DNA of 33,279 nucleotides, taken from assembly GCA_945228905.1 (NCBI GenBank), contig CALYOH010000006.1:1-33279 (forward strand), given 5' to 3'. The position numbers and the translations under genes were made by a program. The notes below the pieces were generated by a model. The model saw nothing but the letters and a program-made list of their open reading frames with translations. It was not told the DNA's origin and did not search any database. Positions 19,930 through 33,279 of this stretch are shown here, one piece after another. Every line of letters starts with the position of its first letter. Within the stretch, counting starts at the first letter, position 1. The DNA is from an uncultured Caryophanales bacterium. Its GTDB lineage: Bacteria; Bacillota_I; Bacilli_A; RF39; UBA660.

Positions 19930-20517
19930 ATGAAGAAAAGAAAAGATTTGACTTTTATAATGATCTTCTTTCTTACATTATGTTTATCTATAACATATTT
20001 ATTTCAAACATCATACGCTAAATATAGAAAACAATTAGAAGGAGAATTAAATGCTACTATAGCAAGTTGGCTAATCAAAGTTAATAATGAAGATATTACA
20101 CAATCTAGAACTTTAGAAAATGAGATAATACCAGTATTTGATACCAACCCATATGTAAAAGAAAATACAATAGCACCTGGAAGTACAGGATATTTTGATA
20201 TAATAATAGAAACAGTAAATGTAGATGTAGATTACAACGTAGAAATAGTTGATTCAAAAGAAGCTACAGATTTACAAGACTTTGTATTAAAACAATATGA
20301 ACTTAATGATTCAGGCACAAGAATAGATATAACAGATCATACATTTAGTAAAGATTTTACTAAGAATACAGAACAAACTAAAATAAGATTTTACTTTGTA
20401 TGGGATGATGATGAAGCAACACAAACAATGAATAATCAAGATGATACATCATATCAATTAGATAATGAAACAACAAAGATTTCTCTAGCAATTCAGTTCA
20501 AACAAAAAAACAGTTAA
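19930..20517 (+). CDS. TasA/camelysin (CalY)-like SipW-dependent surface protein
   Basis: Signal segment ending QTSYAKYRKQLEGELNATIASWLIKVNNEDIT, then ENTIAPGSTGYFDIIIETVNVDVDYNVEI. The only convincing plus-strand gene. Confidence 0.8.
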   Translation: MKKRKDLTFIMIFFLTLCLSITYLFQTSYAKYRKQLEGELNATIASWLIKVNNEDITQSRTLENEIIPVFDTNPYVKENTIAPGSTGYFDIIIETVNVDVDYNVEIVDSKEATDLQDFVLKQYELNDSGTRIDITDHTFSKDFTKNTEQTKIRFYFVWDDDEATQTMNNQDDTSYQLDNETTKISLAIQFKQKNS

Positions 20518-20532: not shown

Positions 20533-21261
20533 TTATGAATTAACTTGTTGAACTACTACTTTGAATTTCATTTCTATACATGGAAGATTATTATCTTTTT
20601 CATATTTTCCACATGCTTCTCCAAAATAAGTATCAGCATCATCTTTATATAAATATAAATTATTTCTCATTGATGGAAATGTTATGTCAGTAACTGTTGC
20701 TTCTGTATAATTAGTTCCACTCTTATTATAATAAATAAATGATGGATTATAAGTATAAAGGTTATCTAATTGGTAATATTTAGAGGTATCTTCATATTTC
20801 CAAGATAAATTAATATTAAAATTAGCACTACTTCCTGAAGCTACAGTATCACTAGAAGTACTAACTAATAATGAAAATGGATATTTATTTTGAAAATCAC
20901 TAAGTACTTGTTCTGAATTGGTAACATTTATTTCATTACCTAACACTTTCACACTAGTAAGCCAATAACTAATATCAGCTGATACTTCACCATTATTATT
21001 AATTTGAACAGTATGATTATAATCTAACATACCAGGCATCATATCAGTAATTGCAACATTAACTGAATTAGTTACAACATCATTTTCAGTAAATTCAACA
21101 TCCCAGCTTGCAACACTCATATCAACATTTAATGTAGCTTGAGATATAAATGCAAACCAAGCATAAGCATTAATACTTAAAGTAAATAATATGAAAAGTA
21201 AAGGAAAAATTAACTTCTTACGTCTACTTTTTCTTTTATCTTTTAAATCATCTTGATTCAT
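20533..21261 (-). CDS. TasA/camelysin-like SipW-dependent surface protein
   Basis: LSINAYAWFAFISQATLNVDMSVASWDVEFTEN ... MMPGMLDYNHTVQINNNGEVSADISYWL. Confidence 0.8.
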   Translation of the reverse strand: MNQDDLKDKRKSRRKKLIFPLLFILFTLSINAYAWFAFISQATLNVDMSVASWDVEFTENDVVTNSVNVAITDMMPGMLDYNHTVQINNNGEVSADISYWLTSVKVLGNEINVTNSEQVLSDFQNKYPFSLLVSTSSDTVASGSSANFNINLSWKYEDTSKYYQLDNLYTYNPSFIYYNKSGTNYTEATVTDITFPSMRNNLYLYKDDADTYFGEACGKYEKDNNLPCIEMKFKVVVQQVNS

Positions 21262-21295: not shown

Positions 21296-22003
21296 TTAAT
21301 CATTTGAATCTTCAATTAAAAACTTATCTACTTTTAATTCTATATCATCTGAATTGTCTTCTTCTTTTTCCTCTTCCATTTCTAATATTTCAGTCTCTTC
21401 TTCTTTTTCTTCTTTATTATTATCAGTTTCTTTTTCATTAGCAATCTCTAACTTTTCTTCTTTCATTTCATTAAGAGTTGCAAAAACTTCTAAAGAAATA
21501 ATTATAACTATTGGACAAAATACACATAAGAAGAATCCTAACTGACTCTTAACAATATGATTAACTGGTGAAATAACAGGAACAATTCCAACTACTTTAC
21601 CTAAAACTTGATCATCATAGATAGCTGGATCTTCTATATCATTCTTAACACCCTTAGTAGTAAATACTCTTCCACCATCTTTTTCATTATTTTCTATAGC
21701 AATAATTCTATGGGTAACAAGTTTACCATCTAGTCCCGCTCTTTCTCCATTATAAACAATGTCATCTCCTACTTTTAATTTATTAGTATCAAAATCTTTT
21801 ACTAAGATAACATCATGTACTTCATATACTCCACTCATCGAACTAGAAGCTATATCAAACATTCTATATCCAAATACACTTCTATTTCCAGAGACATTTT
21901 GAATTATTATAAATGCTAAATATAAACAAATTGTTATAAAGAATACTGCCTTAACAATACCAAAAATGATTTTAAATATTTTATTATCTAAAATTTTTTC
22001 CAT
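21296..22003 (-). CDS. sipW: signal peptidase I, SipW (ER/archaeal) type
   Basis: FDIASSSMSGVYEVHDVILVKDFDTNKLKVGDDIVYNG...GKLVTHRIIAIENN...VFTTKGVKND...VLGKVVGIVPVI; catalytic Ser (SSSM) and His (THRI) present. Confidence 0.88.
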   Translation of the reverse strand: MEKILDNKIFKIIFGIVKAVFFITICLYLAFIIIQNVSGNRSVFGYRMFDIASSSMSGVYEVHDVILVKDFDTNKLKVGDDIVYNGERAGLDGKLVTHRIIAIENNEKDGGRVFTTKGVKNDIEDPAIYDDQVLGKVVGIVPVISPVNHIVKSQLGFFLCVFCPIVIIISLEVFATLNEMKEEKLEIANEKETDNNKEEKEEETEILEMEEEKEEDNSDDIELKVDKFLIEDSND

Positions 22004-22004
22004 T

Positions 22005-23144
22005 TTAAGCCTCTTTTCCTAACATTCTAATAATATCATTATAATTATTTAATTCCTTATCAAAACATCTATCAATAGTTTTTAATATACTATTACTTCT
22101 CTTTTCATTCTTCTCTTTAATTGTTTTTAATTGTTTACTAAATAAATAAGCAATTTTATCTTCATCTAACTCCTCAGAAGAATCTAATAAATTATCTATT
22201 AATCTCTTCATCATTTGATTAATAATAACTGTTTCACTAGCATCTTGACTAGAATTAATTAAATTTTTATTAGCAATAAAAGACATTAAGAATGCTTGAT
22301 CATATTCATTCTTTAATATACCTCTATCATAATAATCTCTTTTATCTTTTTCTTTTTTATCCTTACTTTCAAAACTTTGAATATAATTCCATAATTCTTC
22401 TGCTTTTCTAAAGTTAGGATTCTTTAAAATAACATTTGTTTTTCTAATTGGACTTCTAACTGGAGGTACGTGTAATCTATTAAGAGTTTGCCATAACTCA
22501 GTACCAGTAAATCCATCTAATTGTACTTTAATTTTATATAATCTATCTTTTAAACTCATGTGATTTCTTTCTCCACCAGTTTCTTTAACTATCTTAGAAA
22601 TGTCACTTAAGTCTATAGATATTTTTAAATCATCAGCATCTACTTTAGTAATTGCTTCATATCTCATAATATTTTTATCTAAACAATATGAATTTCCTGT
22701 AGTAGCATTAGTTCTATTTTCAAAGAACTGTCTTGTATTATTTATTAGAGTAAAGATAAATCTATTTTCATAAGTATCCATACTCTCTTCACGATTAATA
22801 TTTAATATTTTTGAAGGTTTAACATCACCATTATCTTCAATCTTTTGAATAAGATTAGTATGTTGAGATAGATGGATAACAGATTCAACAGTTACACGTT
22901 TTGCTAACTCAACTTTAACAATCTCTTCATCATTAATGATAAATCTCTTAGGGTTACGAAGAATATTATCTATATATGGAATAGTATCTTCTAATTTATC
23001 AACCCATTCATAATTAAATTCTTTCATATCATAATCTCTTTTTATGAATAACGTAGAACTTAAATTATTAAGGAATTTATCAGTTGGATCTAATTGTTCT
23101 TCTTCCTGAAGTTTTTCTTCTTCATCTAAAATTTCTATATCCAT
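22005..23144 (-). CDS. DUF2357-like McrBC-associated protein without an obvious nuclease domain
   Basis: REESMDTYENRFIFTLINNTRQFFENR and LHVPPVRSPIRKTNVILKNPNFRKAEELWNYI resemble DUF2357; immediately downstream of the McrB-like ATPase. Confidence 0.6.
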   Translation of the reverse strand: MDIEILDEEEKLQEEEQLDPTDKFLNNLSSTLFIKRDYDMKEFNYEWVDKLEDTIPYIDNILRNPKRFIINDEEIVKVELAKRVTVESVIHLSQHTNLIQKIEDNGDVKPSKILNINREESMDTYENRFIFTLINNTRQFFENRTNATTGNSYCLDKNIMRYEAITKVDADDLKISIDLSDISKIVKETGGERNHMSLKDRLYKIKVQLDGFTGTELWQTLNRLHVPPVRSPIRKTNVILKNPNFRKAEELWNYIQSFESKDKKEKDKRDYYDRGILKNEYDQAFLMSFIANKNLINSSQDASETVIINQMMKRLIDNLLDSSEELDEDKIAYLFSKQLKTIKEKNEKRSNSILKTIDRCFDKELNNYNDIIRMLGKEA

Positions 23145-23161: not shown

Positions 23162-24748
23162 TTAAACCATTTTCTTAAGTCTATTTAAATAATCTTTACA
23201 TTCATTGAAATGATCTTTACCAAAAGTCTTATCTAAGAATTCAATATAAGGATCAATTTCATCTCTAATATATGCTAAGTTTAATTGTTCAAACTTACGT
23301 AAGATTTTACGAGCTATATAATAGTCAACTCCATCAACTTCTTGTCCACCACATTCAATATAAGTAGCAACAAAGTCTTTCATTTGCTTAACAATACGGT
23401 TACCGAAAGCAATACGGAAATGTTTAATTACATAGTCATCCATTTCTTCAATCTTTTGTTCCATCTCACTTGATAAAGGATGATTCTTTTTAGCTTCAGC
23501 AAATAATCCTTCTAAGTAAGAGTTATTAATATTCATTGAATCAGTTTCTACTGGTTCAAATACTTGTCCTTTATCATTAATATCTATTGGCATAGCACGG
23601 TCATACACTTTATCAGTAACTGCAAATGTAGAATCATCATTATTGATTGTACCAATATACCACATATTGCCAGGAATCTTTAATTTACCATTAGTTAATC
23701 TTTTAGGGTCAGTATCCCAAGAACTTGGAACTAACTCAATTATCCATTCATCTCTAGAAGGCATTTCTAGAATAGATAACATTTCTGCAAAGTAATACTC
23801 AACTCTGGCAATATTCATTTCATCTAGTACAGTTAAATAAACATCATCGGTATAACCAGCTAAATACATACCTTTTAATACATCAGTTTCATTAAACTTC
23901 TTAGTAAACTCGTTGAAATATCCAAATAACTCTGTTCTATCTCTCCAAGAAGGTTGAACAGAAGCCATAATAGCATCATTTCTAATAAACTTACCCCAAG
24001 CATATGCTAAGGAAGTTTTACCAGTACCAGAAATACCTTGAAGTATAACTAACTTAGTAGCACTTAAACTAGATATAAATAATCTAATCATTTCAGTTGT
24101 ATAGTATAGTCTTAATTTAGAAGCAGCAAAGTTTCTAAATAATTCAACTAATTCTTGTAAAGTAAATGTATTATTATAATTTTGAATCTTATAATCTTTA
24201 TATTCTAAATCAATAGCATGTAACTTAGTAAATCTAATATTATCTAAACTTACATCTTCTAAATTCTCATCATTAGAATCTTCCTCACTAGTATTAGCTT
24301 CTCCTACAGATCCACTAGATGTACTACTACCACCACTAGTAGCAATAGAAGCACTCTCTCCAGGTTTTAATCCTAACTGAGATACCTTCATAGCAAGTAT
24401 TTGCTCTTTCTCTTGTACTAAAGTAGCAACTTGTCTATTTAATGAACCTATCTCTTCTAACATAGATTCTTGTTCTACTAAAGTCTTTCTAAATTTAAAG
24501 TATCTTCTAAATACAAATCCTATAATTAAAACAATTAATCCTAGAATTACTATCATTATAATAACTGCTAAAATTACAAGTATCCACTCTAGTCCACCGA
24601 AATCTTTTCTATAAAAATCAATTACACTTAGATATTCGCTTATATTAAACATTTGAATAAATCCTTTAATAATTCCTCCAAATATCAAACCAACTCCAGA
24701 AAAGAAAACAGACATAAATTCAAATAAAAATCTTATATATGTACTCAT
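23162..24748 (-). CDS. membrane-anchored McrB-like AAA+ ATPase
   Basis: Two N-terminal hydrophobic segments and a coiled coil. Walker A LQGISGTGKTSLA, Walker B VYLTVLDEMNIARVEYYFAEMLSILE, sensor GTINNDDSTFAVTDKVYDRA. Confidence 0.85.
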   Translation of the reverse strand: MSTYIRFLFEFMSVFFSGVGLIFGGIIKGFIQMFNISEYLSVIDFYRKDFGGLEWILVILAVIIMIVILGLIVLIIGFVFRRYFKFRKTLVEQESMLEEIGSLNRQVATLVQEKEQILAMKVSQLGLKPGESASIATSGGSSTSSGSVGEANTSEEDSNDENLEDVSLDNIRFTKLHAIDLEYKDYKIQNYNNTFTLQELVELFRNFAASKLRLYYTTEMIRLFISSLSATKLVILQGISGTGKTSLAYAWGKFIRNDAIMASVQPSWRDRTELFGYFNEFTKKFNETDVLKGMYLAGYTDDVYLTVLDEMNIARVEYYFAEMLSILEMPSRDEWIIELVPSSWDTDPKRLTNGKLKIPGNMWYIGTINNDDSTFAVTDKVYDRAMPIDINDKGQVFEPVETDSMNINNSYLEGLFAEAKKNHPLSSEMEQKIEEMDDYVIKHFRIAFGNRIVKQMKDFVATYIECGGQEVDGVDYYIARKILRKFEQLNLAYIRDEIDPYIEFLDKTFGKDHFNECKDYLNRLKKMV

Positions 24749-24750
24749 TT

Positions 24751-25806
24751 CTATTCCTCCTCAAAAACTAATACTTCCATACCATCTGCTTCATATGTAG
24801 TAAAGTAATCTAAATCAGTATATTTACAATCTTTAACTATTAAGTAATTAAAGAATCCTTCTTTATAAATAGTATCTGTTTTAGTATATATATCATTTAT
24901 ATGACTAAAATCTTGTATACATGCAAAATTATAATCTTCATAGAATGCATCTCTATGATTAACATAATTATTATAAGTAATACCAAATACTACATATTTT
25001 CTAATAAGAGGATTATCCATTAATTGAAGTATTCTATTAATTAATTGTCCTCTCCATACAAATGAATCTTTTATTTCAACAAACATCATATCAATACTCT
25101 TTCTATTAATAATAGAATCTAGTATAAATAATGAAATTTTTTGCATAATACAATAGAACTTTTTTTCATCAAAACAACTATCTTTATATACTTTACTTAC
25201 TAAAGTTTTTCTATAGTTATTTAGTGCATCTATTTTAGGAGTAATTTCATAATAATTATATTTACTATTATCCCTAAACTTTCTAATTTTAAGTTCAAAA
25301 TTACTTTCAGAAGTATCAAATAATCTTTGTCTATTATTAAAATCTTCTGTCAAATAACTAATTAATTTATTAACTATCTCAGTATTTAATAAATCTTTAA
25401 TCAATCTAGTACCAACTAAATAATTCTTAATTCTTTCAGGTATCTCTTCTTTATTATTAAATTTCATCATATCAATTTGAACTAATTCATATGTAATATC
25501 TCTTAATTCATCAATAGTTTTATTATTATCATAAAACTCTATATTACTATCAAGTATCTCTCTATCTTTATATTCCATCTTCATATCAGTTCTAATACCA
25601 GTAAATTCTTTATAAAGATTATCTAAAGTAAATTTATTATCATCAATAGTATTAAATGTTTCATAATAGTAATTATCAATATAAGTTCTTATATATCCAG
25701 CAAATACTTTTCTAATAAATTTACTATCTCTACCATAAAGAAGAATACCACACTTAATAAGGTGATTAACTTTATAATTCATATATACATTTATTAAATT
25801 GTCCAT
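24751..25806 (-). CDS. hypothetical protein (351 aa) in the ATPase operon
   Basis: ORF ends 2 nt before the ATPase start; own TGATATAAT at 25836-25844; no family recognised. Confidence 0.75.
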   Translation of the reverse strand: MDNLINVYMNYKVNHLIKCGILLYGRDSKFIRKVFAGYIRTYIDNYYYETFNTIDDNKFTLDNLYKEFTGIRTDMKMEYKDREILDSNIEFYDNNKTIDELRDITYELVQIDMMKFNNKEEIPERIKNYLVGTRLIKDLLNTEIVNKLISYLTEDFNNRQRLFDTSESNFELKIRKFRDNSKYNYYEITPKIDALNNYRKTLVSKVYKDSCFDEKKFYCIMQKISLFILDSIINRKSIDMMFVEIKDSFVWRGQLINRILQLMDNPLIRKYVVFGITYNNYVNHRDAFYEDYNFACIQDFSHINDIYTKTDTIYKEGFFNYLIVKDCKYTDLDYFTTYEADGMEVLVFEEE

Positions 25807-25866: not shown

Positions 25867-26799
25867 TTAACTTACTGTGTTTACATCAACTTGAATAATT
25901 GAATTATCATTAACAACTGGATATGTATAATTAGCAGTAATATCATCTTTATAAAATAATACTGTACTAGTCGAAGTAGCATTTACTTTAAAAGAAAATT
26001 TCTTAACATAATTATGTCCATTAATAGTCTGTTCCTGATAATTAGTACTTAATCTATTTAAATAATCATCATCAGTCATATCAAGGAATACAACGCTTGG
26101 ATCAAATGTTAAAGTAACAATAGCTGAATAACATTTAGCTTTATCAGTATCACTTAAATTAGCATAATCTTCTATCTTAATAACATCTCCTACATTATAA
26201 CTACCAAACGCAGTTTCTACTTCATAATAAGTAATTGCATTAGTAAGATTTAATTTTAAATACTTATCATAAGGAGCATCTACTATTTCATATGAGAATT
26301 TACTCTTTTCAACACCAATATTATATGTTGCACTTAATTTCTTTTTATATGGAGCAGTAGACTCAACATATGTCTTTATAGTTACCTCTTCTCCAGAACC
26401 AAATGAACTAACTGGAGTAACAATTAATTGATAACTATCAGTATGAGTATTCTCATAAATAATACCTTCATTTTTACTTAATACACATGTAACTGTACTT
26501 GGACAATCAGCATAAATATTATAATTAATATCTGCTTTAGTATATCTAGCATCACTCTTTCTATTATTAAGGTCTATTGTCAAAGTATAAGAATCTACAC
26601 CATTCCAGTTACTAATAGAATAACCCTTATCATTAACATTAAGTACTGTACTATTAAAGTAAAATCCTTTAGTCTCTAAAATATAATTATTAACAAGATT
26701 TAATATATATCTAGAAAATACTAAAGATATACTTAGTAATACAACTAATACTAGAAGAACAATTATACTAATTTTTTTATGTTTTCTTACAAAATTCAT
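25867..26799 (-). CDS. signal-anchored TasA-like surface protein (310 aa)
   Basis: N-terminal TM ending VFSRYILNLVNNYILETKGFYFNSTVLN, then SYTLTIDLNNRKSDARYTKADINYNI; beta-rich. Confidence 0.6.
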   Translation of the reverse strand: MNFVRKHKKISIIVLLVLVVLLSISLVFSRYILNLVNNYILETKGFYFNSTVLNVNDKGYSISNWNGVDSYTLTIDLNNRKSDARYTKADINYNIYADCPSTVTCVLSKNEGIIYENTHTDSYQLIVTPVSSFGSGEEVTIKTYVESTAPYKKKLSATYNIGVEKSKFSYEIVDAPYDKYLKLNLTNAITYYEVETAFGSYNVGDVIKIEDYANLSDTDKAKCYSAIVTLTFDPSVVFLDMTDDDYLNRLSTNYQEQTINGHNYVKKFSFKVNATSTSTVLFYKDDITANYTYPVVNDNSIIQVDVNTVS

Positions 26800-26808
26800 A
26801 TAATCCTC

Positions 26809-27417
26809 CTATACTATCTGTTTAGATTCTATATTTACTTCAATACTTTCTATATAATTTGCATAAGTAGTATCATTAGCATAAATTAATGGAAAATCAA
26901 TTACTAAAGTATATACATCAGTAGTAGTATTAGTATAATAAAAATCATAACTACTATTAGTTTTATATATCCTATACCAAGCACCATCTTCATCTTGTTT
27001 AGTTATTGGACTATTAAATATATTAGTAGCACCATTAGATGAATAATTTTGATTTCTATATAGTGATAATGTTATAGGTAAATTAGTAGTAGTACGAATA
27101 CTAATAGAATAATTAATATCTACATCACTTACACTAGTCTCATTAAAATTAGATACACTAAATTTATAAATATAAGGTTCATTAGATGGAATAATACCAT
27201 CAGTTTCAATATTAAAACTTAGTTTCTCTTCTCCAATTATATATAAAGCTCTATCAATATCAGCATTAATTTTAGCATCAACTTGATATCTAGCATATGC
27301 AGATCTTAATAGATAAAAAGATAAGAATAATAATAAAATTAATAAAAACGCAAAAAGAAGAAACTTCTTTTTTTCTTCTGCATAATTACCAAATAATTTA
27401 TTAATAATCTTATTCAT
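26809..27417 (-). CDS. TasA/camelysin-like SipW-dependent surface protein
   Basis: LLRSAYARYQVDAKINADIDRALYIIGEEKLSFN signal/N-terminal pattern. Confidence 0.7.
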   Translation of the reverse strand: MNKIINKLFGNYAEEKKKFLLFAFLLILLLFLSFYLLRSAYARYQVDAKINADIDRALYIIGEEKLSFNIETDGIIPSNEPYIYKFSVSNFNETSVSDVDINYSISIRTTTNLPITLSLYRNQNYSSNGATNIFNSPITKQDEDGAWYRIYKTNSSYDFYYTNTTTDVYTLVIDFPLIYANDTTYANYIESIEVNIESKQIV

Positions 27418-27425
27418 CTAATCAC

Positions 27426-28043
27426 CTATCCAGTATATGGTACTAAAGTTTCTCCATTATATTGTAATGCTTCAAAATTTATAGTAAAGAAATCATCTAA
27501 ATTTTCACTATCTTTAGTAAATGGTTCCATATCTTCTTCATCTACATACTCAAAATCAATATTAAGAGTAATAGTTTGTCCTCTATCAATATCTGCTAAA
27601 GAAATTATTCCAGAATATTTATTAGCAGCAGTTTTTATAACAGTACCATTACTTGCACGAATGTCTGTAAAAGTAAGAATCTTATCAGGATCAATACTCT
27701 TATCGACAAATGTAAATTCATATAAAATTGCTACTTCACTACCATAAGGGTCTAACTTTAAATTAAAAGTACCAGTAGCCCCAGGAGATATCTTTCCAGG
27801 TCTAGTATGAGCAACTCCAGTCCAAGAAATATCAGTAACAACTACTTCACTAATATCACTAGTATTATTAACTATATTAACATTGTTTATTTTAAGTTTA
27901 ATATCACTGACATCACCATCAACATCAGTATCTAATAAAGACTCATACAAACCAAAAGTAAATTTTGATCCAATATATGCTACACATAGTAATAAAATAA
28001 ACAAATATATGTTTTTAAAACTTAAAAATTTACTTTTTTTCAT
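27426..28043 (-). CDS. TasA/camelysin-like SipW-dependent surface protein
   Basis: TM then SKFTFGLYESLLDTDVDGDVSDIKLKINNV ... HTRPGKISPGATGTFNLKLDPYGSEVAILYEF. Confidence 0.7.
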   Translation of the reverse strand: MKKSKFLSFKNIYLFILLLCVAYIGSKFTFGLYESLLDTDVDGDVSDIKLKINNVNIVNNTSDISEVVVTDISWTGVAHTRPGKISPGATGTFNLKLDPYGSEVAILYEFTFVDKSIDPDKILTFTDIRASNGTVIKTAANKYSGIISLADIDRGQTITLNIDFEYVDEEDMEPFTKDSENLDDFFTINFEALQYNGETLVPYTG

Positions 28044-28062: not shown

Positions 28063-28071
28063 ATTATAACA
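28063..28071 (-). promoter_or_regulatory. extended -10 (TGTTATAAT) upstream of the TasA-like trio
   Basis: attataaca on +, 20 nt upstream of the ATG at 28043. Confidence 0.45.
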
Positions 28072-28072
28072 T

Positions 28073-28103
28073 AAAAAAAGATTATTTTTACATAATCTTT
28101 TTT
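28073..28103. terminator. intrinsic terminator between the SipW-like gene and the TasA-like trio
   Basis: AAAAAAGATTAT-TTTTAC-ATAATCTTTTTT, perfect 12-bp stem with T-runs on both strands. Confidence 0.75.
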
Positions 28104-28107
28104 ATAT

Positions 28108-28689
28108 TTATAGTATTTCTACCTCTTTATCTTTATTTTCTTTTTTATCTTCCTTTTCAAGTTCTTCTTTTAAAGGATTTTCTTTAAGAATTAAGACAAA
28201 TTCATAGATTTGGTATATAAACACTACCATAATTGGTAAAAGTACTAAGAATAAGAATCCAAACTTAGATTCAAGAATAGATAAAACACTACCCCAAGTA
28301 TGATGAACAGAAGCATATTTACCTAAAACTCTTGTACTTGCAATTGTATTATTATCTCCATCATTTACAGTATATAAACTATTATAATTATCTGTTTTTA
28401 CTTCAAGTACTGGATTACTCTTAACAATATAGTTATCTTCTCTAACTGCATAGTAGTAGATTACATCTCCCTTTTCTATATCATTAGAATTTTTAACTAT
28501 AAGTAAATCTCCACTCTTAACATCTTTAATATTTTTCTCAGCTAATAAGTCTATATTAACTAAAGTATAATCACCAAATTGAGTATAATTATACTTATTT
28601 CTAGATAAGATAAATGAAGTAATTACAATTACATAAACAATAATTAATACTTCAATTACTCTCCATATCCCACTTAATACATTTTTCAT
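28108..28689 (-). CDS. SipW-family signal peptidase homolog, apparently lacking the catalytic Ser and His
   Basis: VKSGDLLIVKNSNDIEKGDVIYYY...YTVNDGDNNTIASTRVLGKYASVHHTWGSVLSILESKFGFLFLVLLPIMVVFI match S26B architecture. The SxSM block is replaced by DYTLVNIDLLAEKN and THRI by VKSNP. Confidence 0.75.
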   Translation of the reverse strand: MKNVLSGIWRVIEVLIIVYVIVITSFILSRNKYNYTQFGDYTLVNIDLLAEKNIKDVKSGDLLIVKNSNDIEKGDVIYYYAVREDNYIVKSNPVLEVKTDNYNSLYTVNDGDNNTIASTRVLGKYASVHHTWGSVLSILESKFGFLFLVLLPIMVVFIYQIYEFVLILKENPLKEELEKEDKKENKDKEVEIL

Positions 28690-28734: not shown

Positions 28735-31700
28735 TTAATCTGATACTTTCTTCTTAACGATAACATATTTAACATCATCATCAATTAATTGATCATTATC
28801 ATATAGTTTAAATACCAATCTATAAGTACCAGAAGTTAAAGTATCTTTTAAAGTAAATTCAAACTCTTTAGTATTTAATCCACCCATATCTAAGTTATAT
28901 TCAGTACTATTAACTTGTACTAAAGAATTACTAAATAGAGAATTAAATGGTACTGTAGTATATTCAATAGAATCAATATCATCAGTTTTTCTCTTTAATA
29001 CTTCTAATCTTAGATTTGGATTATTTAAATCACTTGTATAAGTAACAGTATATTTATTAGTATTTAAATCGTTCATATTTAGAGCAGTATCACCATCTAC
29101 TACTTTTTCTTTATCAGCTACATCAACAACAATTGAATTATCAGAGTTAACTACAGTAACTATATATTCTACTACATGAGCACCATCTACATCTGAATTA
29201 TGTAATCCATCAGATGAAGCAAATAAAGTAAATCTAAGTAGATAATTACCTGTAGGTAAACCTTTATCAGCAACAATGCTTAATGTCTTAGAAAGATTAG
29301 ATACCTTACCAGCAAGTTTTATTCTAAATACACCATCACTATCAGCGAAATGTTTAACTCCATCAAGAGTAATAGATGTACCAGAAAGTAAACTTGAACT
29401 TACTATTTCATCTCCACTTTCATTATAGAAAGCAACATTTAATCCCATATTACTAGATTCATAGTTAGTATCAATTACTGATTGTAAATTATCAGTAACA
29501 TTATAATTAATTGATGTTTTATAAGAAATATTTTCAGGAATATTATAGTAAAGATAATTATTATTATCAGTAATTGTCTGAGTAAGTAAAGCATTAGAAT
29601 CATCATATTTATTATAAACCATTACTGGTTGTCTAATACCAAGAACATTCATAACATTAAAGTTATCTTCATTACGTAACTCAAACAATATAGTATTATC
29701 TAAACTAGTACCCGTAGTATTTGTTTCTTTAAAGTCAAATATAAATAAGAACTCCTCAAAAGCAAAATCAGCATCATTTGGATAATATCTTAAATTAGCT
29801 TCTGCATCATTATAAGTATTACCAGAACTTGTACTATCCATAACAATGAAATTACTTAGTCGATATGAACACTGATTATCATTACCAAACTCAATCAAAG
29901 ATTGATCATATACAGCTTGAGTAACTTTAAAGTAATAATAATTAGGTCTTACACTATTTGCACCTTCTTCCATCATTGTAATCATAGTGCCTACAGGTAA
30001 TGGACTATTAGTAACTAATGCATGATAATTAGTATTATTTTCTCCATATACATCTTTAAATTCAGAACCAGTAATCATAGAGAAATATGTAGTAAATTGA
30101 CTCTTATTAGTTATATTAACAGATGTAGATGAAGGCATTTCATATCTCTTATCATATGTAATTGCTGCATCATATGCATCAGCATCAGTAAATTTACGAG
30201 CTTCAATAGTAACAGTAATTGTAACTAATTGAATCCTAAAATCAATTTCACTTGTAGGTACTGCAGATTGCATCATAATAACAACAGTACCAATTTCATT
30301 TTCTCTTGTAATATTCTTTGCATGGTATAAGTAAAACATTAGTGAAGGAGCAGTTTTCTTACTATCAGTAACATACTGAGTATCGCCTTTACTATCTCCA
30401 CCACCAGCACTTAAAATCTTTGTAGTATTATAATCAGTCCACTCTTGAGTTTCACTCTTTAGAGATAAACCAAATACTTCATTAGCTTCCTCTTCTGTAG
30501 ATCCTATTTTAGGAACATTATTAGAATCAACTAATTCAACATCAGAAGCAAGTCCAGAAGCATTAACACCTACAATATCAAAGATTGTATTACCATCAGC
30601 AAAGTCAATCATTTGAAGAGTATTAGTACCGAAAGATGAATATTTAGCTGCTGTTAAAGTAACATTATAGTTAATAGCAGATAAACCAATTACCCATCTA
30701 TATCCGGTATCACCAACTCTTGTAGGATCAACATATCTAGTTTCAACTTTAGTAAAGTCATTACTTAGATAATTAGAATAGAATCCATCTACTTTAATAT
30801 TATGACCAACACTGTGTAATCCTAAAACATAACTACCACCAATAATAGCCATATTAGCATTAGCATTGTCTCCTGCACTTAAACTATCATCATAAACTCC
30901 ATAATTATATGTATCTCCTTCATGAGTATACATTCCAAAGAATGTCATACCTGTAACTTTACCATATGCAGTAGCATCTTGAGTAATTGTTACATTTAAG
31001 TTTTGATCAGGAATCATATAAAGTCTATTATCAACATTTCTTTGTACTGCACCAGTTTCTTCATTAACATTAGCAGTAGCAGGGACAAGACTTCCTCCAG
31101 AATCTACTCCGCTGTAGAATTCTTTAAGTAAGTTTGCATTATGTTGTAATAATAAAACTGTATTATTTTTAACAACTAATTTATCAATCATATTGAATGA
31201 ATATTTAATATCTGAATATTCATTAGTTCTATCTGTTGTTCCTTCTAGTTCAATAACAGATTCATCTATTGTAAGATTTGTTGCTCTTTGAATAGATATA
31301 TTTTCGTTAGGATTATCTCTTGTACCTAACTTCTTAATATAGATATTTGATGGTCCAGATGAACTAGAAGCATTACCTGAACCAAAGATACTTCCATTAA
31401 GTACGAAAGTATGATTATGATTTCTATATCCTTCACCATTAATATTTACATCAATACCATCAGTAACTGAGATGAAGTTCCAGTCATATGTTTCACTACC
31501 AGAAGCATTAGACTCACCACCACCAAATACAGTTCCTTTAATATATAAATTAGACTCAGTTAATGTACTATCATTAACTGCACTAGAACCTATATTAGTC
31601 TCAGTAGTACCATAAACAACTGCCATCTTTGGTCCACCATAAACGTTCCCATAAATAGAACCACCAACAATATTAACAGTTGCTTTAGAACCGCCTATTC

Positions 31701-33279
31701 CTTCACGACCTGTACTTGCGGCATTACCAGATCCAAATACACATCCAGCATTTGGAGCATCGGAAGTAACAGTACCAATAACAGTATTTCCATCTATTGT
31801 AATTGTTGAATTACCATGTACAACTGCAGTACTACCATTACCACCAGCATAAGTATTCTTTCCTATAGTAGTATCAGTAACAAATACATTTGTATTTCCA
31901 GCAACTAAACCTTCGTTTCCTCCACCATAGATATTGTTAGAAACAGTTGCTCCATCAATATCTAAAGTTGTTGAATAATTAACTCCAGCTGCATTACCAC
32001 CACCATAAATATCAGAAGCAGTAACTTCGCCAATAATTACATTAGTAGAATCAGTAGCAGCTTCATTTCCACCACCATAGATTGTAGTGTAATTTCCATT
32101 AAGAACAGTAACATTAGCTGCAGAAGTAACACCACCGGCATTATTTCCACCATATACTTCAGTTGCAGTAATATTAGAACCGTTTACTCCAATTCTAACA
32201 TTACTTGTAGTAACATTTCCGAGTTGATTAGATCCACCATAGATACTCTGGTAAGTTCCGCCATCTATATTAACATTAGTAGTTCCAACTCCAACTCGGT
32301 TTCCTCCACCATAGACATACATTATTAAACCATCGTCAATAAGTATATTAGTCTCATTAGTAGTTCCACCTAAATTGTTTCCACCATAGATATAACCAAT
32401 TTCACCAGTTGTAACTTCTACACTTGTAGATTCAACACTACCATTAGTATTACTTCCACCAAATACATTATTAATAGTTCCAGATACAATAGTTACATTA
32501 GCTGAACTATCTACTCCAGCGGAATATCCTCCACCATAGACAGAATTTAAAGTACCTTGCTCTATTGTTACATTTGTAGTTTCACAATCTGCTTGGTTTC
32601 CTCCGCCATATATATCTCCAGTAACAGTACCAGCAGAATAATGAACATTTGTATTTGTAGAATAACCACCTAAATTATTTCCACCAAATACACTAGTAAA
32701 ACTTCCACCAGTAACAGAAACATTTGTAGTAGTTATATTTCCTTTTTCATTAGAACCACCATAGATATTTCCTGTGACATTAGTTCCAATTAATCTAATA
32801 TCAGTAGTAGTTTGACCAGTTTCATTTCCGCCACCAAAAGCATTACCAACTGTGCCACCATATAAGTAAACAATATCAGATTTTGATGGAGAACCAGCTG
32901 CATCACAACCACCAAAAACTTTACTAATATTACCGCCTTTAATATTTACAGTAACATCACCAACAACTCTTGGAGTGAAGTCAACAGATCCTTTTCCTCC
33001 ACCAAATGCACTTCCAGTGATAACTCCACTATTTACAGTAACATTTGTAGTTGAAGTAGTATTTGTATTGTTTTGATTTAATGCATTGACAGTACCATAA
33101 GCACTTCCACCATAGACATTAGCAGCAATTGAAGGTGTACTTGTACCATTTCCAATTGTTACATTAACATTATCTCTAACATAAGTTCCAGGATTATTGT
33201 TATTAGTATAACCACCTTCTCCGCCACCATAGACAGAGTCAGTAACAGTTCCAGAAACTATATCCACATCACATGAACC
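28735..33279 (-). CDS. giant beta-helix-repeat surface protein/adhesin, partial (5' end beyond right edge)
   Basis: Frame stays open to the right edge (GSCDVDIVSGTVTDSVYGGGE); the ORF-track start at 33267 is an internal GTG. About 22 repeats of [VI][YF]GG[GSN]xxxGxxxTTNVxIxxGT, then a ~880-aa C-terminal region. Confidence 0.85.
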   Translation of the reverse strand, partial: GSCDVDIVSGTVTDSVYGGGEGGYTNNNNPGTYVRDNVNVTIGNGTSTPSIAANVYGGSAYGTVNALNQNNTNTTSTTNVTVNSGVITGSAFGGGKGSVDFTPRVVGDVTVNIKGGNISKVFGGCDAAGSPSKSDIVYLYGGTVGNAFGGGNETGQTTTDIRLIGTNVTGNIYGGSNEKGNITTTNVSVTGGSFTSVFGGNNLGGYSTNTNVHYSAGTVTGDIYGGGNQADCETTNVTIEQGTLNSVYGGGYSAGVDSSANVTIVSGTINNVFGGSNTNGSVESTSVEVTTGEIGYIYGGNNLGGTTNETNILIDDGLIMYVYGGGNRVGVGTTNVNIDGGTYQSIYGGSNQLGNVTTSNVRIGVNGSNITATEVYGGNNAGGVTSAANVTVLNGNYTTIYGGGNEAATDSTNVIIGEVTASDIYGGGNAAGVNYSTTLDIDGATVSNNIYGGGNEGLVAGNTNVFVTDTTIGKNTYAGGNGSTAVVHGNSTITIDGNTVIGTVTSDAPNAGCVFGSGNAASTGREGIGGSKATVNIVGGSIYGNVYGGPKMAVVYGTTETNIGSSAVNDSTLTESNLYIKGTVFGGGESNASGSETYDWNFISVTDGIDVNINGEGYRNHNHTFVLNGSIFGSGNASSSSGPSNIYIKKLGTRDNPNENISIQRATNLTIDESVIELEGTTDRTNEYSDIKYSFNMIDKLVVKNNTVLLLQHNANLLKEFYSGVDSGGSLVPATANVNEETGAVQRNVDNRLYMIPDQNLNVTITQDATAYGKVTGMTFFGMYTHEGDTYNYGVYDDSLSAGDNANANMAIIGGSYVLGLHSVGHNIKVDGFYSNYLSNDFTKVETRYVDPTRVGDTGYRWVIGLSAINYNVTLTAAKYSSFGTNTLQMIDFADGNTIFDIVGVNASGLASDVELVDSNNVPKIGSTEEEANEVFGLSLKSETQEWTDYNTTKILSAGGGDSKGDTQYVTDSKKTAPSLMFYLYHAKNITRENEIGTVVIMMQSAVPTSEIDFRIQLVTITVTIEARKFTDADAYDAAITYDKRYEMPSSTSVNITNKSQFTTYFSMITGSEFKDVYGENNTNYHALVTNSPLPVGTMITMMEEGANSVRPNYYYFKVTQAVYDQSLIEFGNDNQCSYRLSNFIVMDSTSSGNTYNDAEANLRYYPNDADFAFEEFLFIFDFKETNTTGTSLDNTILFELRNEDNFNVMNVLGIRQPVMVYNKYDDSNALLTQTITDNNNYLYYNIPENISYKTSINYNVTDNLQSVIDTNYESSNMGLNVAFYNESGDEIVSSSLLSGTSITLDGVKHFADSDGVFRIKLAGKVSNLSKTLSIVADKGLPTGNYLLRFTLFASSDGLHNSDVDGAHVVEYIVTVVNSDNSIVVDVADKEKVVDGDTALNMNDLNTNKYTVTYTSDLNNPNLRLEVLKRKTDDIDSIEYTTVPFNSLFSNSLVQVNSTEYNLDMGGLNTKEFEFTLKDTLTSGTYRLVFKLYDNDQLIDDDVKYVIVKKKVSD
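31340..33279 (-). repeat. coding tandem repeats (VYGGGN...TNVTI, about 22 copies, mostly 20-27 aa)
   Basis: Recurrent ccaccaccataga/t on the + strand; repeat unit read directly from the translation. Confidence 0.85.

What the first reader, a model, noticed from the sequence alone, without database searches (positions are those of the whole stretch)
28108..28689. Apparent catalytically dead SipW-family signal peptidase
Seen: aligning by eye with the intact paralog at 21296-22003, the Ser block (IASSSMSGVYEVHDVILVKD) corresponds to DYTLVNIDLLAEKNIKDVKSGDLLIVKN with no Ser-Met, and the His block (KLVTHRIIAIE) to YIVKSNPVLEV. TM topology and the later GD/GK blocks remain. Known: S26B peptidases use a Ser/His pair. 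Inference: a pseudo-enzyme kept as a substrate chaperone, adaptor or regulator for the adjacent TasA-like proteins or adhesin.
Basis: partly seen in the sequence, partly recalled or inferred. Interest (0 to 1): 0.72.

Follow-up and report, generated by a model that had tools for sequence, protein, structure and literature searches.

The report
Conserved dead signal peptidase, adhesin locus
Next to a giant surface-protein gene this uncultured gut bacterium carries a signal-peptide-cutting enzyme that has lost its cutting residues, and its relatives in at least 11 other genera keep the same dead version under strong selection, so it probably helps assemble surface proteins without cutting anything.

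Summary
Confirmed. The minus-strand ORF 28108-28689 (193 aa, "dSip") is a full-length SipW-type (S26B) signal peptidase homologue that lacks Ser-Met, His and the catalytic Asp. It is not recent decay. In 134 SipW-like cores, the 48 without Ser-Met form one branch (SH-aLRT 99). All 48 also lack the His, and all lie in 12 genera of one Bacilli family. dN/dS against the nearest relative is 0.098, lower than for the intact paralogue (0.159). No Ser/Thr/Cys plus His/Lys pair is conserved in the ectodomain, so substitute catalysis is unlikely.

The locus is a McrBC-linked secretion cluster: giant adhesin, dSip, three TasA-like proteins, a 351-aa protein, an NxD-type McrB GTPase, a DUF2357 protein, active SipW, TasA-like. 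It matches the "CoCoPALM" class named in 2024 and not yet described in detail. Outside this family the loci inspected carry active SipW only. In most loci dSip closes the adhesin transcription unit, before a terminator-like hairpin.

Most likely dSip is a non-catalytic membrane partner for adhesin or TasA-like precursors, working beside active SipW, as SipA does in streptococcal pili. That it is dead and kept is shown; the exact role is inferred. New variant of a known kind; interest about 0.5.

The parts
28108..28689 (-). dSip: catalytically dead SipW-type signal peptidase homologue (TM1 about 8-30, beta domain 31-129, TM2 about 142-170, acidic/lysine-rich cytoplasmic tail ending KEVEIL)
21296..22003 (-). 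aSip: SipW-type signal peptidase with intact Ser-Met, His and Asp blocks
28735..33279 (-). ADH: giant repeat-rich secreted surface protein or adhesin; 5' end cut off by the contig end
   Evidence: homologues of 2,400-2,850 aa with a signal sequence in relatives
28074..28103 (-). terminator-like hairpin plus T-run directly after the dSip stop codon, followed by TATAAT (28063-28068) and a ribosome-binding site before the next gene
   Evidence: fold -12.1 kcal/mol on 55 nt, comparable hairpins in most genus loci; sequence. The consensus scanner did not report it because it requires 3 G-C pairs
27426..28043 (-). Tas1: secreted TasA-like (SipW-substrate-like) protein
   Evidence: no Pfam/NCBIfam family above cut-off
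26809..27417 (-). Tas2: secreted TasA-like protein
25867..26799 (-). Tas3: secreted TasA-like protein
24751..25806 (-). HYP351: protein of unknown function; in several relatives its homologue is fused behind an active SipW domain
23162..24748 (-). McrB-like AAA+ GTPase with N-terminal membrane and coiled-coil region, NxD-type signature NNDD
22005..23144 (-). DUF2357 (McrC-like) partner of about 380 aa; no nuclease family detected
   Evidence: (PF09823 E 1.6e-10)
20533..21261 (-). Tas4: TasA-like protein with an AYAWF-type signal sequence
19930..20517 (+). Tas5: TasA-like protein, convergent

Best explanation
dSip is an old pseudo-signal-peptidase. It arose by one loss of catalytic residues in a SipW-type enzyme at the base of, or early in, one Bacilli family, and has since been kept as a non-catalytic membrane component of a McrBC-linked (CoCoPALM-type) surface-protein secretion system (shown: residues lost, single origin, conserved, syntenic). 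Most likely mechanism (inferred): the two transmembrane helices and the former substrate-binding beta domain hold or orient the signal-anchor regions of the adhesin and TasA-like precursors next to the active SipW of the same locus. This would delay, order or couple signal-peptide removal to surface assembly, a role like the one proposed for the inactive peptidase homologue SipA in sortase pili.
For: Ser-Met and His absent in all of 48 family members, one clade with support 99 and one change of state on the tree. dN/dS 0.098 against 0.159 for the intact paralogue and 0.095 for a housekeeping neighbour. Present in 11 of 11 good genomes of the genus. Locus order ADH-dSip-Tas1-Tas2-Tas3-HYP351-AAA-DUF2357-aSip-Tas4 kept in most genomes of the genus, with related orders in other genera. 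All 12 other-genus genomes with dSip also carry the McrB-like gene; none of at least 35 listed family genomes without it has a strong dSip hit. Constraint has moved to the membrane helices: clade-wide 2.68 bits (TM2) and 2.29 (TM1) against 2.14 (ectodomain), whereas in the intact genus paralogue the ectodomain is highest (3.41). dSip and aSip tails share a short acidic motif of the type DDIEIL: 14 of 28 and 6 of 18 against 0.05 and 0.16 expected in shuffled tails, suggesting a common cytoplasmic partner. Precedent: SipA, inactive and essential for pilus polymerisation (PMC4049620).
Against: No interaction or phenotype data. In G019, G006 and G030 the syntenic dSip stands alone without secreted-protein genes beside it, so it is not strictly tied to the cluster. 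The tail motif was found post hoc, is absent in some genomes, and its presence in dSip and aSip of one locus is not significantly linked (p 0.28). The dSip structure model is only moderately confident (pLDDT 71, pTM 0.54), and its match to SEC11A is weak (E 0.041, TMq 0.38) with spurious Tudor-domain hits ranked above it.
Confidence: 0.5

Rival explanations
1. Obligate non-catalytic subunit of a hetero-oligomeric signal peptidase: dSip pairs with aSip and is needed for aSip stability or activity, rather than acting on substrates itself.
For: dSip and aSip lie in the same cluster in most loci and are directly adjacent in G016 and G032. Shared tail motif. Transmembrane helices are the most conserved part of dSip.
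Against: Other Bacilli families run the same type of cluster with active SipW only. In the genus dSip is in the adhesin transcription unit rather than with aSip. In G016 and G032 the partner aSip has itself lost Ser or His.
Confidence: 0.25
2. Regulator: dSip senses secretion or surface state and signals through its cytoplasmic tail or transmembrane helices, like the reported second, regulatory role of Bacillus subtilis SipW.
For: B. subtilis SipW is reported to influence matrix-gene expression besides processing (PMC13082335, citing Terra 2012). Conserved tail motif and transmembrane helices. dSip persists alone in a few genomes.
Against: No regulator gene is evident beside it in the loci examined. 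The tail motif is not universal.
Confidence: 0.15
3. dSip is still a peptidase that uses other residues.
For: The family topology is retained, and some regions (GD, LGK) are conserved as in active enzymes.
Against: In the ectodomain only T36 (37 of 48) is conserved among S/T/C/H/K; it lies right after TM1, not at the nucleophile loop, and no His or Lys base is conserved.
Confidence: 0.04
4. Decaying pseudogene or annotation artefact.
For: Loss of active-site residues; one diverged match is reported with in-frame stops inside the matched stretch (G020:C8).
Against: Intact ORF in 28 genus loci, dN/dS 0.098, one old clade.
Confidence: 0.02

Closest known systems
SipA of Streptococcus pyogenes (inactive SPase I homologue of pilus loci; PDB 4n31; PMC4049620)
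   Same: Signal-peptidase homologue without catalytic residues, encoded with surface-polymer genes; shown essential for pilus polymerisation; proposed to bind a key component at the cell surface.
   Different: SipA derives from Ser/Lys SPase I and belongs to sortase pili; dSip derives from the Ser/His SipW/Sec11-like branch, has a C-terminal second transmembrane helix, sits with TasA-like proteins and McrBC genes, and no sortase was found among the neighbours scanned. Analogue, not orthologue.
SipW of Bacillus subtilis / S26B signal peptidases
   Same: Family of origin (NF046067 full-length match) and linkage with TasA-like substrates.
   Different: Catalytic Ser, His and Asp lost; a separate intact SipW is in the same locus.
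SpsA of Staphylococcus aureus (PMC12445088)
   Same: Inactive paralogue of an active signal peptidase (SpsB) in the same genome.
   Different: SpsA is described as dispensable and is a Ser/Lys-type homologue; dSip is in a dedicated secretion cluster across a family.
[quoted passage not shown] PMC11090510)
   Same: McrB-like GTPase with NxD motif and a membrane/coiled-coil region, DUF2357 partner and signal-peptidase genes in one cluster.
   Different: The 2024 paper names the class in a paragraph and leaves the description to later work; the dead SipW, giant adhesin and TasA-like set are not mentioned in the passages read.

Membership tests
SipW-type (S26B) signal peptidase, by descent | Sequence match to the family profile over the full domain | tested here: met
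   NF046067 E 7.7e-9, 25 of 28 orthologues match; groups with SipW-like sequences in the tree. Below the equivalog cut-off of 190 bits.
SipW-type (S26B) signal peptidase, by descent | N-terminal TM, extracytoplasmic beta domain, C-terminal TM | tested here: met
   AlphaFold2 model: helix 2-33, strands 35-129, helix 142-170, moderate confidence
Active S26B signal peptidase | Catalytic Ser (S-M) and His, plus Asp | tested here: not met
   K52/N53 and N92 in place of Ser-Met and His; 0 of 48 clade members have Ser-Met or His at those columns
Active S26B signal peptidase | Peptidase activity on signal peptides | not testable with these tools
   needs biochemistry
SipA-type inactive pilus peptidase | Signal-peptidase domain lacking catalytic dyad, encoded with surface-polymer genes | tested here: met
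   TasA-like and adhesin genes rather than sortase pilins
SipA-type inactive pilus peptidase | Linked sortase and LPXTG pilins | tested here: not met
   no sortase match among 10 neighbouring proteins
SipA-type inactive pilus peptidase | Required for polymer assembly | not testable with these tools
   needs gene removal
CoCoPALM cluster | McrB-like GTPase with NxD motif, usually followed by D or E | tested here: met
   NND[D/E] in 25 of 25 homologues; criterion from PMC11090510
CoCoPALM cluster | FtsB-like TM and coiled-coil fused to the GTPase | tested here: inconclusive
   hydrophobic N-terminal region by sequence; only a weak FtsL_Actino profile hit (E 0.024, residues 57-134)
CoCoPALM cluster | DUF2357 (McrC) partner | tested here: met
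   PF09823 E 1.6e-10, adjacent gene in relatives
CoCoPALM cluster | Associated signal peptidase family protein | tested here: met
   aSip and dSip; active SipW genes in other families

The most novel reading that the evidence does not exclude
A dedicated pseudo-signal-peptidase is a working part of a McrBC-derived, GTP-driven membrane machine that secretes and assembles giant adhesins and TasA-like fibres, so a restriction-enzyme motor has been re-used for surface assembly and one of its signal peptidases has been turned into a substrate-holding subunit.
Probability: 0.3. Interest if true: 0.75.

Novelty: new variant of a known kind. Interest (0 to 1): 0.5.

Why it matters
Inactive signal-peptidase homologues are known, but the best-studied case, SipA, is of the Ser/Lys type and how it works was left open by the paper that gave its crystal structure and binding assays. 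dSip is an independent, family-wide example from the SipW (Ser/His) branch, with 48 diverged sequences that show which residues matter once catalysis is gone (N31, Y80, G133 and P152 invariant; transmembrane helices most conserved). It also gives a concrete gene list for CoCoPALM clusters, which were named in 2024 without a worked-out function, and points to a surface-secretion role for them.

Tried and rejected
Sequence search of solved structures with dSip alone: nothing relevant. Pfam: no family above cut-off for dSip, the TasA-like proteins or HYP351. Fold search with the dSip model: SEC11A only at rank 6, E 0.041, Tudor-domain noise above it; the aSip model (pLDDT 58) matched SEC11A at 1.8e-4 and SipA at 0.025, so the fold search supports the intact paralogue better than dSip. 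Pseudogene idea: rejected on dN/dS and clade age. Alternative catalytic residues: none conserved. Idea that the tail motifs in dSip and aSip of one locus come and go together: not significant. Idea that the dead form is general to McrBC-linked clusters: rejected; in the loci of other families inspected the SipW genes are all intact. The Tas2 dN/dS row paired the wrong paralogues and is not used.

Full report
What was checked. The ORF at 28108-28689 (minus strand, 193 aa) exists as described. It matches the NCBIfam SipW model across its length (NF046067 E 7.7e-9; archaeal/S26B-type TIGR02228 E 1.8e-5), and 25 of 28 orthologues do too. The intact paralogue at 21296-22003 matches the same models more strongly (E 1.2e-20 and 9.9e-20) and has SSM, THR and EDP. 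dSip has K52-N53 where Ser-Met stands, N92 where His stands, and no matching acid block.

Orthologues. A search of 59 related genomes found the protein in most genomes of the genus, at 36-88% identity to the window's copy. In the genus 31 of 39 genomes have it, and 11 of 11 with at least 90% completeness and at most 5% contamination. In 397 genomes of the class, strong matches outside the genus were found only in the same family: 12 genomes of 11 other genera. The family-external matches that were inspected are all intact enzymes.

One old loss. I aligned 134 SipW-like cores from all loci. The 48 sequences without Ser-Met (grouped by that criterion) all also lack the His at its column. Of the other 86, two show a single loss: G016 (Ser to Glu) and G032 (His to Asn), both in genomes without the McrB-like gene. 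A tree built without the Ser and His columns puts the 48 on one side of a single branch (SH-aLRT 99, one change). It is a quick tree of 197 columns with many weak inner branches, but this branch is strong.

Selection. Against the nearest relative (G003), Nei-Gojobori dN/dS is 0.098 for dSip, 0.159 for aSip, 0.184 for the adhesin, 0.102 for the GTPase and 0.095 for a pseudouridine synthase gene about 11 kb away. dSip is therefore among the most constrained genes of the locus. Between more distant pairs dS is near saturation, so those ratios are not used.

What is conserved. No Ser/Thr/Cys/His/Lys column is conserved in at least 70% of the dead clade within the ectodomain except T36, next to TM1. 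N31, Y80, G133 and P152 are invariant in 48 of 48. Information content is highest in the C-terminal membrane segment (2.68 bits), then TM1 (2.29), then the ectodomain (2.14). In the intact paralogue of the genus the ectodomain is highest (3.41). This is what one expects if contacts in the membrane, and not catalysis, are being kept; that reading is inference.

Structure. With 8 aligned sequences (window plus three loci allowed by the tool), AlphaFold2 gave pLDDT 71, pTM 0.54: TM helix 2-33, beta domain 35-129, helices 130-140 and 142-170, disordered tail. Foldseek matched human SEC11A (7p2p_A) only weakly (E 0.041, prob 0.97, TMq 0.38), behind Tudor-domain noise. The aSip model was poorer (pLDDT 58) but matched SEC11A at 1.8e-4 and SipA (4n31) at 0.025. 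The fold is therefore supported mainly by sequence and topology.

Locus. In most genomes of the genus where the contig is long enough, the order is giant adhesin, dSip, Tas1, Tas2, Tas3, HYP351, GTPase, DUF2357, aSip, Tas4. Further upstream in relatives lies a second active SipW with a long cytoplasmic domain. In other genera the same parts recur in other orders, such as adhesin, a protein of about 500 aa, dSip, Tas1, aSip, Tas2. The adhesin-to-dSip gap is usually about 30-50 nt, and in most genus loci a hairpin with a T-run follows the dSip stop codon; the window and several others then show a TATAAT box before Tas1. The simple terminator scanner did not report the hairpin, since it wants three G-C pairs. 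I read this as dSip closing the adhesin transcription unit. In G019, G006 and G030 dSip sits at the same chromosomal place without the cluster. 'TasA-like' here rests on the signal-anchor type, size, linkage to SipW and mutual similarity; no Pfam or NCBIfam TasA model was passed.

McrBC link. The 528-aa AAA protein has a Walker A motif, LDEMN and GTINNDDSTF; the NND[D/E] form is present in all 25 homologues examined. The CoCoNuT paper states that NxD-type McrB GTPases carry NxD, usually followed by E or D, and names CoCoPALM as those with an FtsB-like membrane and coiled-coil domain linked to signal-peptidase proteins (PMC11090510). The partner is a DUF2357 (McrC) protein (PF09823 E 1.6e-10). 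The membrane/coiled-coil feature is only weakly supported by profile (FtsL_Actino E 0.024). The GTPase is found in 130 of 397 Bacilli genomes. In clusters of other families the SipW genes inspected, often two per locus, are intact, so the dead form looks like a local invention of this family.

Tail motif. dSip and aSip tails are otherwise hard to align, yet 14 of 28 and 6 of 18 carry [DEN][DEN][IV]E[IVL][LIF], mostly at the very end, against 0.05 and 0.16 expected from shuffled tails; 456 other ORFs have 4 in 172,100 residues. This was noticed after looking, and presence in the two paralogues of one locus is not significantly linked.

Interpretation. Shown: homologue of SipW, catalytic residues gone, single old origin, purifying selection, linkage to adhesin/TasA-like/McrBC genes. 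Inferred: that it acts as a membrane-embedded holder or adaptor for precursors or for aSip. The best precedent is SipA, an inactive signal-peptidase homologue essential for pilus polymerisation whose former catalytic positions can be mutated without effect (PMC4049620). SpsA is a second inactive example (PMC12445088). A regulatory role is the main alternative, given the bifunctional role reported for B. subtilis SipW (PMC13082335). I found no paper on an inactive SipW-branch protein in the held library, which covers open-licence papers only.

Limits. The organism is an uncultured member of Bacilli (nearest named record: UBA3789; other close records come from ruminant gut samples). All genomes are draft or metagenome-derived; the window's own assembly has 8.6% estimated contamination, but the locus recurs in many independent genomes. 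Absence counts in incomplete genomes are lower bounds on presence.

Noticed in passing
L060:9099-9680 (G016) and L062:5000-5770 (G032): In two genomes of the genus without the McrB-like gene, the normally active SipW next to dSip has lost its Ser (G016, E-M) or its His (G032, LNR), i.e. later, independent losses in the partner enzyme.
   Followed up: partly
window:24751-25806 and L196:9045-11072, L119:9797-11827, L063:8403-10355: HYP351 homologues are fused behind an active SipW domain in several relatives, suggesting HYP351 is a cytoplasmic partner domain of SipW.
   Followed up: partly
dSip and aSip C-termini, e.g. window 28108-28125 (KEVEIL): Short acidic C-terminal motif of DDIEIL type shared by dead and active SipW paralogues and nearly absent from other proteins.
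   Followed up: partly
window:9669-13835: 1388-aa protein with a type IV prepilin-like start (GFTLIELLAAIAI): an unusually large pilin-like protein.
   Followed up: no
window:16056-16955: Membrane protein with a long Pro/Val/Ala repeat tail.
   Followed up: no
L043 (G033), between dSip and Tas1: About nine unrelated genes (one resembling adenylosuccinate synthetase by eye) are inserted between dSip and Tas1, splitting the cluster just after dSip and its terminator-like hairpin.
   Followed up: no
L178 (G108), L179 (G153), L180 (G304): Family members whose McrB-like/DUF2357 pair has no SipW gene in the stretch read; either a different subtype or cut by contig ends.
   Followed up: no
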